Source: Caulobacter sp. FWC26 (lineage in GTDB: Bacteria > Pseudomonadota > Alphaproteobacteria > Caulobacterales > Caulobacteraceae). From it: a stretch of DNA of 64,000 nucleotides. The stretch is taken from contig NZ_CP033875.1 in the NCBI RefSeq assembly GCF_002742645.2, forward strand, positions 1,714,001 through 1,778,000, given 5' to 3'. Numbering within the stretch: the stretch's first letter is position 1; each line of letters opens with the position of its first letter. The notes beneath the pieces are model-generated. The model had not been told where the DNA came from and did not search any database. It worked only from the letters and a program-made list of their open reading frames with translations. Below, one piece after another: positions 54,604 through 60,304 of the stretch. The position numbers were made by a program, and so were the translations under genes.

Positions 54604-56940
54604 TCAGGCGATCCGACGGCTCTCGGTATCGACCGGCAGGTCGATCGACCACGCGTCTAGGAACGCGATCAACGGTTCGACGGCCAGCGGCTTGGCGACG
54701 TGATAGCCCTGCGCAAGGTCACAGCCCATCAGCTGCAGGGCGGCGATCACCTCGCGAGTTTCGACGCCTTCGGCAGTGACCTTCATGCCGAGGCTGTGGG
54801 CCAGGTCGACCGTCGACTTCACGAGCAACGCATCGGTGCCGCCGGACGCTAGGGCCGTCACGAACATCTTGTCGATCTTCAGTTCGTCGGCGCGGATCTG
54901 CTTCAGATAGGCCAAGGACGACAGGCCTGAGCCGTAGTCGTCGATCGACACGCGGATATTGGCCTCGGCCAGTCGGGCCAACACCGCCAGGGCGATGTCC
55001 GGATTGCCGATAACCGCCGTCTCGGTGATCTCGAAACAGATATTGGCCTTGGCGGCCGAAACTTGCGCGATGGCGTGCTCGGCGAAGGCCTGATCGTCGA
55101 TCAGCCGGCCCGAGATGTTGACCGACACCATCACCTCGTGGCCCGCCGCGCGCAGACGCGCTTGGTCCTCGATGGCTTGGGCGAGGACGTAGTCGGTTAA
55201 GGCCCGAATATGGCCTGTCTCCTCGGCCATGCCCACAAAGAGGTCCGGCCGCAGAAAACCTCGTGTCGGATGGTTCCAGCGAACCAGCGCTTCGACCCCG
55301 GTGATCCGACCCGAGCGCAGGTCGAGCTTGGGCTGGTGGTTCAGCAGCAGGCCGCCGTGGCGGACCGCCTCCAGCATCTCGCTCATCAGGGACAGGTTGG
55401 AGGCCGGATCGCCATAGGCCTCGGCGTCGAATACCATCAGCTTTTTATGGCTAGCGCGGGCCTGGTCCAGTCCGATCAGGGCGTGCTCGATCAGCCTCGC
55501 AGCGTCGCTGTCGCCGGCCCTGGCCGCCGCCATGCCGAAGGTGATGTGAACATCGACCGGCTCGCCGCCGATCTGCACCGGGGCTTCGAGGCTGGGAAGC
55601 AGACCTTCGGCTCGGGCCAGGACCTCATCGATGTGGGTGGCGGTCGAGATGACGCACAGGACCGAGGTGGTCAGTCGCCCCACGACCAAGCCGGGCGTGG
55701 TCTCGCCAACGCGTCGACCTAGCTTTGCGACGAGCTCCGTCGCCAGTTCGTAGCCAATCGCCGCGCGAACTTGGGTGAAGCGGTCGAAGCCGATCGTTCC
55801 GATGACCAGTTGTTCGCCCTCCGCCAAGCTGAGCAGGCGGGTCTGGATAGACCGTTCCAGCGCGCGGCGGTTTGGCAAGCCCGTCTCAGCGTCGTGCAGC
55901 GCTTGATGGACCATCTCCGCCTCACGCTCGCGGATCTCTCCGGCCATCAGGTTGAAGCTTTCGGCGAGTCGGCCGATCTCGTCGCGTGTGGTGACCTCGA
56001 CGACGACATTCTCGCCGCGCTGCAAGCGGCGAGCCGCTTCATCCAACGCGGTGATCGGCTTGGCGAGGCCTCGCGACAGCGCCCAACTTGCGGCGGCGAC
56101 GAGGGCCGCGCCGATCAGCCCGACCACGATGACCGCCGCCATCAGCGGGCGGTAAGGCGCCATGGCGAGCGCCATAGGATAGCGCAGCACCAAGGCCGCG
56201 CCGCGTGTTGGGTCGAGGGTGCGGATAGGCTGCACCAGCACCAGACTGTCGCCATCGCTACGAAGCCTGGAGGGGGCCAGGGACTTCTCTCGCATTGCTT
56301 TTGCGACATACGCCGCTAGCGCTTTTGCAGCGGGCGCTTGATCGGCGGAGACCCAGGCGTCGCCGCGCTGGGTAAAGACTTGGGCGTCCAGCCTGATCGC
56401 CGAGAGCTTCTCCAGCGCCTGCATCTCACGCTCGTCAAGCTTGGCGGCGAAGACGACCCAGCCTGTTAGGGTCGGCGACAGGATTGGCGCGGAGATCAAT
56501 TGATAGGGCTGGCCATCGACGGCGAACACCCCCAGCGCGCCGTCCTCGGCGTCCAACGCGGTCCACAAGGTTTCGAGATCCAGACGGCGCGGATCAATGC
56601 CGACGACATCGCCATCAACGCCGACGGTGAAGGCGAGGTCCAGGCCCAGGCGCTGGCGCAGATTGGTGACGGCCGACTCCACGGTCGCCCGATCATGGGT
56701 GGCGACTGCGGCGCGGAAACCAAAGTCACGGGAGAGCAGCTCGGCGCCGTCCTGCAGGCGTTGCGTGCGAAGCGCCCATACCCGGTCGAACACCGTTCCG
56801 GTCGCGGCGAGCTCCTGGCGTACAGCGCGCTGGGCGTTGTTGGCGATCGCCACATAGACCGTCACGGCCACGACGCTCAGCGCCAGGGCGAAGAGCCCGG
56901 CGTAGAGGACGGTCAGCTTGGTCTGGAGGCGCTGGAACAT
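54604..56940 (-). CDS. Membrane GGDEF/EAL protein, degenerate GGDEF and intact EAL
   Basis: Protein of 778 residues. A membrane helix (about 10-32) is followed by a periplasmic sensor region (about 33-275), a second helix (about 280-305), HAMP (about 305-360), a GGDEF domain and an EAL domain. The GGDEF signature is degenerate (GRLTTS), so cyclase activity is unlikely. The EAL domain keeps VEALVRW (Glu550), NISGR, FEITET, SIDDYGSG, LKIDKMF and TAEGVET, as expected of an active c-di-GMP phosphodiesterase. The start at 56940 is preferred because it leaves the first helix at the N terminus. It lies 7 bases after the cupredoxin gene, suggesting one transcript. Confidence 0.88.
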   Translation of the reverse strand: MFQRLQTKLTVLYAGLFALALSVVAVTVYVAIANNAQRAVRQELAATGTVFDRVWALRTQRLQDGAELLSRDFGFRAAVATHDRATVESAVTNLRQRLGLDLAFTVGVDGDVVGIDPRRLDLETLWTALDAEDGALGVFAVDGQPYQLISAPILSPTLTGWVVFAAKLDEREMQALEKLSAIRLDAQVFTQRGDAWVSADQAPAAKALAAYVAKAMREKSLAPSRLRSDGDSLVLVQPIRTLDPTRGAALVLRYPMALAMAPYRPLMAAVIVVGLIGAALVAAASWALSRGLAKPITALDEAARRLQRGENVVVEVTTRDEIGRLAESFNLMAGEIREREAEMVHQALHDAETGLPNRRALERSIQTRLLSLAEGEQLVIGTIGFDRFTQVRAAIGYELATELVAKLGRRVGETTPGLVVGRLTTSVLCVISTATHIDEVLARAEGLLPSLEAPVQIGGEPVDVHITFGMAAARAGDSDAARLIEHALIGLDQARASHKKLMVFDAEAYGDPASNLSLMSEMLEAVRHGGLLLNHQPKLDLRSGRITGVEALVRWNHPTRGFLRPDLFVGMAEETGHIRALTDYVLAQAIEDQARLRAAGHEVMVSVNISGRLIDDQAFAEHAIAQVSAAKANICFEITETAVIGNPDIALAVLARLAEANIRVSIDDYGSGLSSLAYLKQIRADELKIDKMFVTALASGGTDALLVKSTVDLAHSLGMKVTAEGVETREVIAALQLMGCDLAQGYHVAKPLAVEPLIAFLDAWSIDLPVDTESRRIA

Positions 56941-56947
56941 CGCCGAC

Positions 56948-57568
56948 CTAGTGACGGCCAGAGGGTTGGCGCAGTTCGACCGTAACGGCTTCGCGCACGG
57001 CCCCGGCGCCGACATTGGCAGTCGCCAGGGCTTTCTCATTCTTCATGGCGCGCAAATAAGGGTGCCAGACCTTGGCGGTCACCGCGCCAGCTGGAACATC
57101 GCGGACCGTGACGACGCCATTCGCATCGGTCTTGCCGGCGTAGGCGGTGTCCACCACGCGAATGAAGCTGACCATCTGGTCGTGGATATTGCAGCCAATG
57201 GCCACGACGCCCGGCGCGTTCATCCTCGCCGTGCGGTTCTCCTCGTGACCGTAGAGCTTGATCTCGAACTTGTTGCCTGAGGAGAACGAGTAGACGTGAT
57301 GCCGAACCTTATCGAGGTTCGGGAACTGCACGTCGGCGCCGACTGGGACCACCAGCATGAACGGGTTGAACTGAATGTTCTGCTGCGAGATCCGGTATGC
57401 CCATGGGAACTTGATAGGGCCCTTCGTGGGCTGTCCGTTTGGATAGACCATGACCACTGCGTCCGGAACGGGCTTTCCATCGACGCTACGCACCGAGATG
57501 GTCAGATCGCCAGCGTGGGCATATCCGCCAATGGACAGAGCAATAAGTGATGTCGCCAGACGCTTCAT
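56948..57568 (-). CDS. Exported cupredoxin-like protein (methylamine-utilisation type)
   Basis: Protein of 206 residues with a signal peptide (about 1-19). The middle region has a plastocyanin-like copper site: His in KVRHHVYSFSSG and Cys/His/Met in GCNIHDQM. A copper electron carrier or sensor is likely. Relatives are annotated as methylamine-utilisation proteins but no methylamine dehydrogenase genes are present. It is followed by the EAL protein and is divergent to the DUF3034 gene, 185 bases away. Copper binding itself is inferred from the motif. Confidence 0.78.
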   Translation of the reverse strand: MKRLATSLIALSIGGYAHAGDLTISVRSVDGKPVPDAVVMVYPNGQPTKGPIKFPWAYRISQQNIQFNPFMLVVPVGADVQFPNLDKVRHHVYSFSSGNKFEIKLYGHEENRTARMNAPGVVAIGCNIHDQMVSFIRVVDTAYAGKTDANGVVTVRDVPAGAVTAKVWHPYLRAMKNEKALATANVGAGAVREAVTVELRQPSGRH

Positions 57569-57753
57569 ACGTCTAGCTCTACCTAAGCGCCGGTGAAATC
57601 GCCGTTAATGCAGATTTTCCGACCAGCTGGAACTGGATTGGAAAGTTCATGGCGGTCGCCTAGTCGGAAACCTTCTGTAAAAGCTTTGGATAACAAGGTG
57701 TGAACGTCCGGTGCGGGACGTCGGACTCGCGATCAGCTCTCTTGGAGGGGCCT

Positions 57754-58620
57754 ATGAAGCCAGTTTCAGTGGCGACCATCTTCTTGTTCGCAGCTCTGGC
57801 GGGCGCCGCGTCGGCTGGGGAGATCGAGACCGGCGGGAAGCTTCTGCTGACGCACGGCGTCAGCGCGCTGGAGGGCGGCGCAGGCGGGGGTCTGGCGACC
57901 TGGGCGGTGATCGCCGGTGGAGCGACCAATCGCGGTGTCGGCGGCGAGGTCCACTACACGCACGTCGGCGTTGATGACTACAAGCTGGGCGCCTTCGGCG
58001 CGGCGGTGGGCTATCGCGATCGCGTCGAGCTGTCGGCGACCCAGCAGGTGTTCGACACCGGCGCGACCGGCGCCAAGCTTGGTCTTGGGCGCGGCTTCAA
58101 GTTCAAGCAGACCGTTCTGGGCGCCAAGGTGCGGGTGATCGGTGACGCGGTCTATGACCAAGACCGCTGGCTGCCACAGATCGCGGTCGGCGCGCAGTAC
58201 AAGGATAACAATCAGGACGCCCTCGTCCGGGCGCTCGGCGCCAAGAAGGATAGCGGCGTCGACTACTATGTCGCCGCCACCAAGATCCTGCTCGACAAGT
58301 CTCTGGTGCTGAGCGGCGCGGTGCGGCTGACCAAGGCCAACCAGACGGGGCTGCTCGGGTTCGGCGGGACCGATGGCTACAAGCCTCAGTTTGAAGGCTC
58401 GGCGGGCTATATGCTGAGCAAGCGGCTGGTGGTGGGCGCCGAGTATCGGACCAAGCCCAGCAATCTGGCGTTCGCCAAGGAGGATGACTGGATGGACCTC
58501 TTTGCGGCCTATGCCATCAACAAGAACCTGTCGGTGACCGCCGCCTATGTGGACCTCGGCGACATCGCCACCTTCAAGAACCAGCGCGGCGTCTATCTGT
58601 CGCTGCAGGCCGGCTTCTAA
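57754..58620 (+). CDS. DUF3034 outer membrane beta-barrel-like protein
   Basis: Protein of 288 residues with a signal peptide (about 1-21) and alternating hydrophobic/aromatic strands ending in LSLQAGF, a C-terminal aromatic typical of outer membrane barrels. It belongs to DUF3034 as I recall it. The channel or ligand is unknown. GGAGGGG lies 4-10 bases before the ATG at 57754. It shares a divergent control region with the cupredoxin/EAL pair and is followed 12 bases later by the globin gene. Confidence 0.8.
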   Translation: MKPVSVATIFLFAALAGAASAGEIETGGKLLLTHGVSALEGGAGGGLATWAVIAGGATNRGVGGEVHYTHVGVDDYKLGAFGAAVGYRDRVELSATQQVFDTGATGAKLGLGRGFKFKQTVLGAKVRVIGDAVYDQDRWLPQIAVGAQYKDNNQDALVRALGAKKDSGVDYYVAATKILLDKSLVLSGAVRLTKANQTGLLGFGGTDGYKPQFEGSAGYMLSKRLVVGAEYRTKPSNLAFAKEDDWMDLFAAYAINKNLSVTAAYVDLGDIATFKNQRGVYLSLQAGF

Positions 58621-58632
58621 GCGGAAATGACC

Positions 58633-59139
58633 ATGAAGACCTTCAGAGCCCTCATTCTGGCCGGGGGCGCCTCCATGTTGTTCGCCGGGGCCGCCTTCGC
58701 CCAGGACACGACGCCGCCCGGTGAAAAGCCGGTTGATCCCTACACGCAGTCGCCCGCCAACGCCGGCGCAGCACCCCTGTCTGATCCGGCGACCTTCCAG
58801 GCCTTCCATGGCAAGGAGGGCCTGGCGCGGATCGCCTCCGACCTGGTCGATCGCAGCATCGCCGACCCGAGGATCAAGGAGATCTTCGCCACCACCGACG
58901 TCCCGCGCCTGAAGCGGACCCTGACCGAGCAGTTCTGTTATGTGCTGGGCGGCGGCTGCGTCTATACCGGCCGCGACATGGCGTCGGTTCACAAGGACAT
59001 GGGCGTCACCAACAAGGACTTCAACGCCCTGGTCGAGAACCTGCAGTGGGCGATGGACAAGGAAGGCGTGCCCTTCGCCGTCCAGAACAAGCTGCTGGCC
59101 AGGCTGGCGCCGATGCAGCGCAAGGTCGTTGAGCGTTAG
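58633..59139 (+). CDS. Exported truncated hemoglobin-like protein
   Basis: Protein of 168 residues: a signal peptide (about 1-23, ending AFA), a Pro-rich linker, and a group 1-like truncated globin domain (about 50-165). The proximal His is in RDMASVHKDMGVT, the F-helix motif of truncated globins. Truncated globins are normally cytoplasmic; export to the periplasm is unusual. The start at 58633 has a GGA 7 bases upstream; ATG at 58627 is an alternative. It follows DUF3034 in one operon and faces the cupredoxin/EAL genes. A role in O2, NO or redox sensing is speculation. Confidence 0.82.
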   Translation: MKTFRALILAGGASMLFAGAAFAQDTTPPGEKPVDPYTQSPANAGAAPLSDPATFQAFHGKEGLARIASDLVDRSIADPRIKEIFATTDVPRLKRTLTEQFCYVLGGGCVYTGRDMASVHKDMGVTNKDFNALVENLQWAMDKEGVPFAVQNKLLARLAPMQRKVVER

Positions 59140-59207: not shown

Positions 59208-60304
59208 GTGACCGCAACCCTCGAAGACGCCCGCGTGGCGCTGGACCGCATCGCCGACCCGGCCAGCGGGCAGGGGTTGGTGACGGCGGGTCTGGTCCAG
59301 GGCCTGGTCGTCCGTAACGGTCGCGCCGGATTCATGCTGGAGGTCCCCGCCAGCGTCGTGGCGTCCTACGCGCCGGTCCGCGAGGCCGCTGAGAAGGCCC
59401 TGGCTGGCCTGCCGGGAATCGAGCAGGCGCAGGTGGTGCTGACCGCCCAGGCCGCCGAGGGCGCGACCCGCGTTCGCAAGGGCGCCAAGATCACTGAGGA
59501 CCCGCAGGCTCGCATGGCCCCGCCGCCGGAGGCGGAGAAGCCCAAGCACGTGCGCCATGTCATCGCCGTGGCGTCGGGAAAGGGGGGGTCGGCAAGTCGA
59601 CTGTGTCGACCAATCTCGCCGTGGCCTTCGCCAGGATGGGCCTTCGGGTGGGCCTGCTGGACGCCGACATCTATGGCCCTTCGGCCCCCAAGATGATGGG
59701 CGTGGACGGCGATCCGCTGTTCGAGAACGATAAGCTCCAGCCGCTGGAGGCCCACGGCGTCAAGCTGATGTCGATCGGCTTCATCGTCGACGAGGGCAAG
59801 GCGATGATCTGGCGCGGGCCGATGGCCTCGTCGGCCGTTCGCCAGATGATCCACGACGTGGCCTGGGGTTCGGAGGCGCAGCCGCTGGACGTGCTGGTCG
59901 TCGACCTGCCGCCCGGCACCGGCGACGTGCAGTTGACCCTGGTGCAGAAGCTCCGCATCGACGGCGCGGTGCTGGTGACCACGCCGCAAGAGATCGCCTT
60001 GATCGACGCGCGCCGGGCGGCCTCGATGTTCGAAAAGACCGCGACCCCGATCCTCGGACTGATCGAGAACATGGCCTTCTTCGCCGATCCCTCGACGGGC
60101 GCGCCAATCCCGATCTTTGGCGAGGGCGGCGGGGTCGCCGAAGCCGCGCGTCTGAACGTTCCGCTGCTGGGCCGCGTGCCGATCGAGATCGCTGTCCGAC
60201 TGGGTGGCGACCAGGGCGTGCCGGCGGTGATCGGCGAGCCCAAGGGGCAGGCCGCCCAGGTGTTCGTCGCCGCCGCACAGGTGCTCTGGGAAGCGATCGA
60301 CTAA
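59208..60304 (+). pseudogene. mrp: Mrp/NBP35-family Fe-S carrier ATPase, frameshifted in the P-loop
   Basis: The two halves give one ~365-residue Mrp protein if one base is added. The first frame runs from GTG 59208 (AGGAGG 8 bases upstream) through a DUF59-type domain to VIAVASGKGG. The run of G at 59582-59588 has 7 instead of the 8 needed for GKGGVGKST, and translation ends at 59696. The second frame continues from 59603 with STNLAVAF, DADIYGPSAPKMMG and DLPPGTGDVQLT. A real defect would disable ATP binding, but a sequencing or assembly error in the G-run is the most likely cause. Confidence 0.85.

What the first reader, a model, noticed from the sequence alone, without database searches (positions are those of the whole stretch)
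54604..59139. Divergent cluster linking a periplasmic globin, cupredoxin, outer membrane protein and c-di-GMP phosphodiesterase
Two divergent operons share a 185-base control region: cupredoxin plus EAL/GGDEF membrane protein on one side, DUF3034 barrel plus exported truncated globin on the other. Three of the four products are exported, with a copper site (GCNIHDQM, HH) and a heme-type globin (proximal His in ASVHKDMG), and the fourth has a periplasmic sensor region coupled to an intact EAL domain. Inference: the exported redox or gas-binding proteins supply a signal that the EAL protein converts into c-di-GMP breakdown. No such system is known to me by name.
Basis: partly seen in the sequence, partly recalled or inferred. 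Interest (0 to 1): 0.8.

Follow-up and report, generated by a model that had tools for sequence, protein, structure and literature searches.

The report
Copper-and-globin envelope signalling gene module
Four neighbouring genes, for an exported copper protein, a membrane receptor with a domain that breaks down the messenger c-di-GMP, an outer-membrane barrel and an exported globin, travel together across distantly related bacteria and look like an undescribed system that reads chemistry outside the inner membrane and changes cell behaviour.

Summary
In 398 sampled genomes of the phylum, DUF3034 occurs in 39. All 39 carry this exported globin, 38 the cupredoxin, 37 the receptor's sensor region; 37 have all four. 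Thirty have them in one locus, in several gene orders (window; 29 fetched loci); seven have them split. No other neighbour family comes close.

The system is two pairs: cupredoxin + receptor (together in 50 genomes; receptor alone 1, cupredoxin alone 3) and DUF3034 + globin. The usual output is a c-di-GMP phosphodiesterase with conserved EAL residues and often a lost GGDEF motif. Elsewhere the same receptor type carries a class III cyclase or Ser/Thr kinase, and some DUF3034-globin loci have a histidine kinase or an ECF sigma/anti-sigma pair instead. That argues for signalling. The globin keeps its proximal His, an apolar distal pocket and a near-invariant CX6C pair; the cupredoxin keeps four type-1 copper ligands; DUF3034 is predicted as a 12-strand barrel.

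Ligand, contacts and direction of signalling are inferred. Ten paper searches found no description.

The parts
54604..56940 (-). Membrane receptor: periplasmic dCache_3/CHASE4 region, HAMP, degenerate GGDEF, intact EAL (778 aa)
   Evidence: Pfam; EAL residues invariant or nearly so in 72 aligned proteins
56948..57568 (-). Exported cupredoxin with type-1 copper ligands H90, C126, H129, M132; plastocyanin-like domain at about residues 55-139
57569..57753 (.). 185-bp divergent intergenic region between the two operons
57666..57689 (+). Partly conserved element GGAAACCTTCTGTAAAAGCTTTGG upstream of DUF3034; a weak candidate for a control site
   Evidence: 9 aligned intergenic regions of relatives: GGAAACC in 5 of 9, GTAA in 9 of 9; no sigma-70 promoter found
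57754..58620 (+). DUF3034 protein, predicted 12-strand outer-membrane barrel with signal peptide and C-terminal Phe
58627..59139 (+). Exported truncated globin: proximal His122, CX6C pair Cys104/Cys111, apolar distal pocket
   Evidence: Pfam Bac_globin; conservation; controls

Best explanation
This is an envelope signalling module. The exported type-1 copper protein is the periplasmic partner of the dCache/HAMP receptor: its copper redox or occupancy state is read by the receptor's periplasmic domain, which switches the cytoplasmic EAL domain and so lowers c-di-GMP. The exported globin, paired with the DUF3034 outer-membrane barrel, is the upstream chemical front end: it binds or reacts with a small molecule that enters across the outer membrane (nitric oxide is my first guess, oxygen or peroxide next) and passes the change, by electron transfer or contact, to the copper protein or the receptor. 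Shown by computation: gene and genome linkage, export signals, conserved copper and heme ligands, conserved EAL residues, interchangeable outputs. Inferred: heme and copper content, cupredoxin-receptor contact, relay from globin to copper, ligand, sign of the response.
For: Cupredoxin and receptor co-occur in 50 of the 54 genomes that have either, of 398, also when unlinked (G142, G158, G375, G015). DUF3034 and globin: 39 of 39. The outputs change while the envelope proteins stay: EAL in most; Guanylate_cyc (L177, L181) and Pkinase (L174) beside the cupredoxin; Pkinase with all three envelope genes in L054 and L055; HAMP-histidine kinase plus another small copper protein after DUF3034-globin in L031, L033, L034; ECF sigma and RskA anti-sigma after DUF3034-globin-cupredoxin in L127. 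Copper ligands 84 of 84 and proximal His 103 of 103; exported by a simple rule: 101 of 102 globins, 81 of 84 cupredoxins. Partial correlations of evolutionary distance are higher for cupredoxin-receptor periplasmic part (0.41) and DUF3034-globin (0.43) than for cupredoxin-EAL part (0.17) or globin-EAL part (-0.19).
Against: No biochemistry, expression or phenotype was available. Cupredoxin-globin partial correlation is only 0.03 (0.13 in the thinned set), so a direct globin-copper contact has no support there. Cupredoxin + receptor occur without DUF3034 or this globin in 13 genomes, so the globin is dispensable for the pair. G078 keeps DUF3034 + globin with neither cupredoxin nor receptor found, and G019 has no receptor. 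Four of 14 fetched DUF3034-negative cupredoxin loci show no receptor nearby, though three of those genomes have one elsewhere. The co-occurrence statistics ignore relatedness, and 17 of 51, 5 of 37 and 10 of 29 rows of the three search alignments came from sampled genomes, besides the window.
Confidence: 0.5

Rival explanations
1. Metal sensing: the receptor senses copper (or heme) supply. The cupredoxin delivers or buffers copper, DUF3034 is an uptake channel, the globin binds periplasmic heme, and the EAL domain sets lifestyle to metal availability.
For: CHASE4 domains of two P. aeruginosa PA14 receptors bind copper or heme in vitro (PMC13277305: abstract and sections 7, 8, 11 read) and that of IsmP binds ferric iron (PMC10904736: abstract). 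Invariant copper ligands.
Against: No metal transporter, chaperone or siderophore gene recurs beside the module. The cupredoxin domain matches electron-transfer copper proteins. Those receptors are not shown to be orthologues; the periplasmic region had no PDB match by sequence.
Confidence: 0.2
2. Enzyme first: globin and cupredoxin are an exported redox enzyme couple (for instance NO or peroxide removal with DUF3034 as channel), and the EAL receptor only adjusts lifestyle to the same stress without touching them.
For: Truncated group 1 globins often act on NO (recalled; PMC3820574 seen in a search listing only). DUF3034-globin loci can lie apart from the receptor.
Against: The tighter pair of the receptor is the cupredoxin (50 of 51 receptor genomes). 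The distal Tyr/Gln set typical of NO-dioxygenase globins is absent: B10 V/L/I/M in 99 of 103, E7 and E11 apolar in 103 of 103.
Confidence: 0.17
3. Shared regulation only: the four genes answer the same regulator but have no mechanistic link.
For: The pairs can be unlinked. The cupredoxin-receptor pair also occurs without DUF3034, and DUF3034-globin occurs with other regulators (L031, L033, L034, L127).
Against: Linkage survives several rearrangements and near-exact co-occurrence survives loss of linkage. No other neighbour family comes close: next are a short-chain dehydrogenase cluster in 16 of 106 loci and an OMPP1/FadL cluster in 12, each with 9 Caulobacter-type loci.
Confidence: 0.1

Closest known systems
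IsmP/ImcA and other CHASE4 receptors of Pseudomonas aeruginosa (PA2072, PA14_37690, PA14_53310)
   Same: Membrane GGDEF/EAL proteins with a periplasmic CHASE4 region, reported to bind ferric iron, copper or heme (PMC10904736 abstract; PMC13277305 abstract and sections 7, 8, 11).
   Different: No cupredoxin, globin or DUF3034 partner appears in what I read; IsmP-type proteins have a cytoplasmic PAS domain, absent from the window receptor; PA14_37690 showed no PDE activity in vitro.
HmsC/HmsD and PdeC (periplasmic redox input to c-di-GMP enzymes)
   Same: A periplasmic protein or domain passes redox state to a membrane c-di-GMP enzyme (PMC8846402, passages).
   Different: Input is cysteine pairs, not copper or heme proteins; no barrel or globin partner in those passages.
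Globin-coupled sensors such as DgcO
   Same: Globin linked to c-di-GMP signalling (PMC8846402, passages).
   Different: There the globin is a domain of the enzyme itself; here it is a separate exported group 1-like truncated globin.
PrrC/SenC with the PrrB kinase (recalled, no call)
   Same: Periplasmic copper-related protein acting on a membrane sensor.
   Different: Sco/thioredoxin fold, histidine-kinase output, different family.
FapF, KdgM/NanC porins and COG4313 channel (barrel fold)
   Different: 9-15% identity; a shared barrel fold shows no function.

Membership tests
Group 1 truncated hemoglobin (TrHb1) | Bac_globin match and proximal His F8 | tested here: met
   42.3 bits, cut-off 21; His 103 of 103
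Group 1 truncated hemoglobin (TrHb1) | Distal Tyr B10 with polar E7/E11 (labels recalled, placed by alignment to HbN) | tested here: not met
   B10 V/L/I/M in 99 of 103, E7 and E11 apolar in 103 of 103; 20 hand-chosen lower-scoring globins: Tyr B10 13 of 20
Type-1 copper cupredoxin | Cupredoxin fold and His-Cys-His-Met ligands | tested here: met
Type-1 copper cupredoxin | Copper actually bound | not testable with these tools
   needs protein
EAL c-di-GMP phosphodiesterase | Catalytic residues | tested here: met
   8 of 9 residues invariant in 72 of 72, the ninth in 71 of 72
EAL c-di-GMP phosphodiesterase | Hydrolysis of c-di-GMP | not testable with these tools
   needs assay
GGDEF diguanylate cyclase | GGDEF motif in the window protein | tested here: not met
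   Window reads TTSVL; motif intact in 24 of 72 relatives
CHASE4/dCache_3 receptor | Pfam domains over cut-off plus HAMP | tested here: met
   dCache_3 38.0 (25.7), CHASE4 28.4 (26.2), HAMP 38.7 (25)
IsmP-type receptor | Cytoplasmic PAS between membrane and GGDEF | tested here: not met
   No PAS match in the window protein
FapF amyloid exporter | 12-strand barrel | tested here: met
FapF amyloid exporter | fap gene context and amyloid export | tested here: inconclusive
   No recurrent neighbour family besides the module; fap genes not searched by name
Methylamine utilisation (mau) protein, the database label of this cupredoxin | mau gene context | tested here: inconclusive
   Label seen; no recurrent neighbour family besides the module; mau genes not searched by name

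The most novel reading that the evidence does not exclude
A general extracytoplasmic signalling system in which a type-1 copper protein is the protein ligand of a family of transmembrane receptors with interchangeable outputs (c-di-GMP phosphodiesterase, diguanylate cyclase, class III cyclase, Ser/Thr kinase, possibly histidine kinase), and an exported disulfide-bearing globin with an outer-membrane channel gives it gas or redox specificity: globin-based sensing moved outside the cytoplasm.
Probability: 0.3. Interest if true: 0.9.

Novelty: new variant of a known kind. Interest (0 to 1): 0.72.

Why it matters
What most c-di-GMP receptors sense is unknown. Here comparative genomics names the partners: an exported copper protein found with the receptor in nearly every genome that has it, and an exported globin with its own outer-membrane barrel. 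That makes the ligand question directly testable in harmless, tractable bacteria (Caulobacter; Pseudomonas fluorescens-group species encode the receptor). It would also give a first role to DUF3034, to a family of exported CX6C globins with an unusual apolar heme pocket, and to cupredoxins now labelled 'methylamine utilization protein'.

Tried and rejected
Defence-system role: no PADLOC match for the four proteins. Chance neighbourhood: rejected. DUF3034 in the PDB by sequence: nothing convincing. Receptor region in the PDB: none with the single sequence, HAMP-region matches only with the profile. Promoter and terminator scan of 57400-57900: nothing found. Globins without DUF3034 (G328, G154): my DUF3034 model found nothing in the 16 kb around them; both look like lipoproteins by eye. 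For the L031, L033, L034 kinases the sensor model scored only 53-70 bits and Pfam found HAMP but no Cache domain, so I treat them as a different receptor. L041 (sigma/anti-sigma about 1.1 kb upstream of the globin with two ORFs between) and L013 (sigma factor about 0.75 kb from DUF3034 with another gene between) are weaker than L127 and not counted. L027 has a sensor region without any output domain.

Literature: ten searches; searches returned nothing, one search returned two incidental papers for DUF3034 (listing only); in the listings and passages I saw, none describes the module. The library lacks most subscription papers and holds no preprints.

Not done: structure prediction of the receptor region and a Foldseek listing for the cupredoxin (queue full; the VIA-align comparison was used). 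Absence of a family from fold listings is not taken as evidence.
Full report
WHAT IS THERE. The window's genome (G000, 4.87 Mb; the nearest named relatives are Caulobacter) holds two divergent two-gene operons. Minus strand: an exported cupredoxin (56948-57568), then a membrane receptor with a periplasmic dCache_3/CHASE4 region, HAMP, degenerate GGDEF and intact EAL (54604-56940). Plus strand: DUF3034 (57754-58620), then a truncated globin with a signal peptide (58627-59139).

IS THE GROUPING REAL. DUF3034 was sought in 398 genomes of the phylum with the Pfam model, which does not depend on my alignments: 39 have it. The 398 were then searched with family alignments of the globin, the cupredoxin and the receptor's periplasmic-plus-HAMP region. 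Cut-offs were set after seeing the scores: globin above 120 bits (lowest counted genome 132, a broken second copy in G078 at 125, next 91), cupredoxin above 118 bits (lowest counted 119, next 96), receptor E 1e-25. By these, 41 genomes have the globin, 53 the cupredoxin, 51 the receptor. All 39 DUF3034 genomes have the globin (2 other genomes do too), 38 the cupredoxin (not G078), 37 the receptor (not G019, G078); 37 have all four, from 25 of the 27 genera with DUF3034. Cupredoxin and receptor: together in 50, receptor alone in 1 (G119), cupredoxin alone in 3 (G019, G052, G233), neither in 344. One-sided Fisher values lie between 9e-59 and 4e-38, but they ignore relatedness, and 17 of 51 globin, 5 of 37 cupredoxin and 10 of 29 receptor alignment rows came from sampled genomes, besides the window.

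LINKAGE. I examined 106 DUF3034 loci: 67 from named genomes and 39 regions from 38 sample genomes, the window's own genome being the 39th. With score cut-offs the globin is beside DUF3034 in 102 of 106; the misses are three loci where DUF3034 starts within 300 bp of a contig end (L036, L057, L067) and the broken second copy in G078 (L136). The cupredoxin is present in 80, the receptor region in 73, the receptor with EAL in 68, all four with EAL in 67 (L049, where the nearest receptor is a cyclase, and L014, cut by a contig end, are not in the 67 although EAL receptors lie there). Single-linkage clustering at 65% DUF3034 identity leaves 43 clusters, with globin in 41, cupredoxin 31, receptor 26, receptor with EAL 23, all four 22. 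Several gene orders hold all four: collinear, divergent, inverted receptor, globin moved to the other operon. Among 1,530 predicted genes the next largest neighbour clusters are short-chain dehydrogenases (16 loci), OMPP1/FadL (12), an mrp-type NTPase (10) and an outer-membrane efflux protein (10); the first three consist of 9 Caulobacter-type loci plus a few others, the fourth mostly of Herbaspirillum. In the sample, 29 fetched loci plus the window have all four in one place. Seven more genomes have them split: G213, G225, G261 and G389 carry DUF3034-globin at one locus and cupredoxin-EAL receptor at another; G246, G126 and G142 are other splits.

TWO PAIRS AND INTERCHANGEABLE OUTPUTS. The data split the module into DUF3034 + globin and cupredoxin + receptor. 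Of 15 cupredoxin genomes without DUF3034 I fetched 14 cupredoxin loci: 6 have an EAL receptor beside it (L176, L182-L186), 2 a receptor with a class III cyclase (L177, L181), 1 with a Ser/Thr kinase (L174), 1 a hybrid histidine kinase nearby (L192), and 4 none nearby (L178, L179, L180, L193), of which three genomes have a receptor elsewhere. With DUF3034 and globin, L054 and L055 have cupredoxin and receptor-Ser/Thr kinase. L049 has an extra dCache-HAMP-GGDEF protein beside the module. In L031, L033 and L034 a different HAMP-histidine kinase and a different small copper protein follow DUF3034-globin (the L031 copper domain is just under its Pfam cut-off). In L127 (G019, which lacks the receptor) DUF3034-globin-cupredoxin is followed by an ECF sigma factor and an RskA anti-sigma factor. 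The envelope proteins stay while the output changes; this is my main argument that the module signals.

HOW IT PROBABLY WORKS. Distances among 68 loci with all four families gave partial correlations of 0.43 (DUF3034-globin), 0.41 (cupredoxin-receptor periplasmic part), 0.36 (globin-receptor periplasmic part), 0.20 (DUF3034-receptor periplasmic part and DUF3034-EAL part), 0.17 (cupredoxin-EAL part), 0.13 (DUF3034-cupredoxin), 0.03 (globin-cupredoxin) and -0.19 (globin-EAL part); the largest, 0.50, is between the receptor's own two halves. In a set thinned to 35 the first three were 0.48, 0.39 and 0.28. This fits a chain DUF3034 - globin - receptor - cupredoxin, but relatedness limits it and it gives no support for globin-cupredoxin contact. 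I propose that the copper protein is the receptor's protein ligand, the globin with its barrel the chemical front end, and c-di-GMP breakdown the output. Apolar distal pockets are known from NO and CO sensors (recalled), hence NO as first guess. Ligand, contacts and sign are inference.

KNOWN OR NOT. Ten searches of the held papers showed no description. Closest is the report that CHASE4 regions of two P. aeruginosa PA14 receptors bind copper or heme (PMC13277305: abstract and sections 7, 8, 11), and ferric iron for IsmP (PMC10904736: abstract). A review (PMC8846402: passages) describes globin-coupled sensors and periplasmic thiol input through HmsCD and PdeC. PMC3770913 (passages) lists truncated globins of iron oxidisers without this context. 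I file the system as a new variant of a known kind: a periplasmic protein acting on a membrane c-di-GMP receptor.

Noticed in passing
window 59208-60304 (+): The mrp/apbC-type gene beside the module is read in two overlapping frames (ORFs 59208-59696 and 59603-60304) near a run of seven G: a frameshift or a sequencing error. A relative (L008) encodes both domains in one frame.
   Followed up: partly
L196, L198, L199 (G086, G362, G383): A second type of apparently exported globin with the same CX6C pair but lower module score, in genomes without DUF3034.
   Followed up: partly
L098, L099 (G344, G237): Two EAL receptors, one on each side of the cupredoxin gene, on one strand with DUF3034 and globin; relatives of one receptor are Pseudomonas proteins.
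   Followed up: no
L049 8789-10498 (-): Extra dCache-HAMP protein with an intact GGDEF domain beside the module, so the receptor type can also carry a diguanylate cyclase.
   Followed up: partly
L177, L181 (G064, G281): Cupredoxin followed by a dCache-HAMP receptor with an adenylate/guanylate cyclase domain.
   Followed up: partly
L136 (G078:C3, about 72 kb): A second, broken copy of DUF3034 and globin with a stop codon, in a genome without the cupredoxin and receptor.
   Followed up: no
L167, L168 (G328, G154): Module-type globins that look like lipoproteins by eye, in genomes without DUF3034; G154 also has the cupredoxin with a receptor-Ser/Thr kinase elsewhere.
   Followed up: partly
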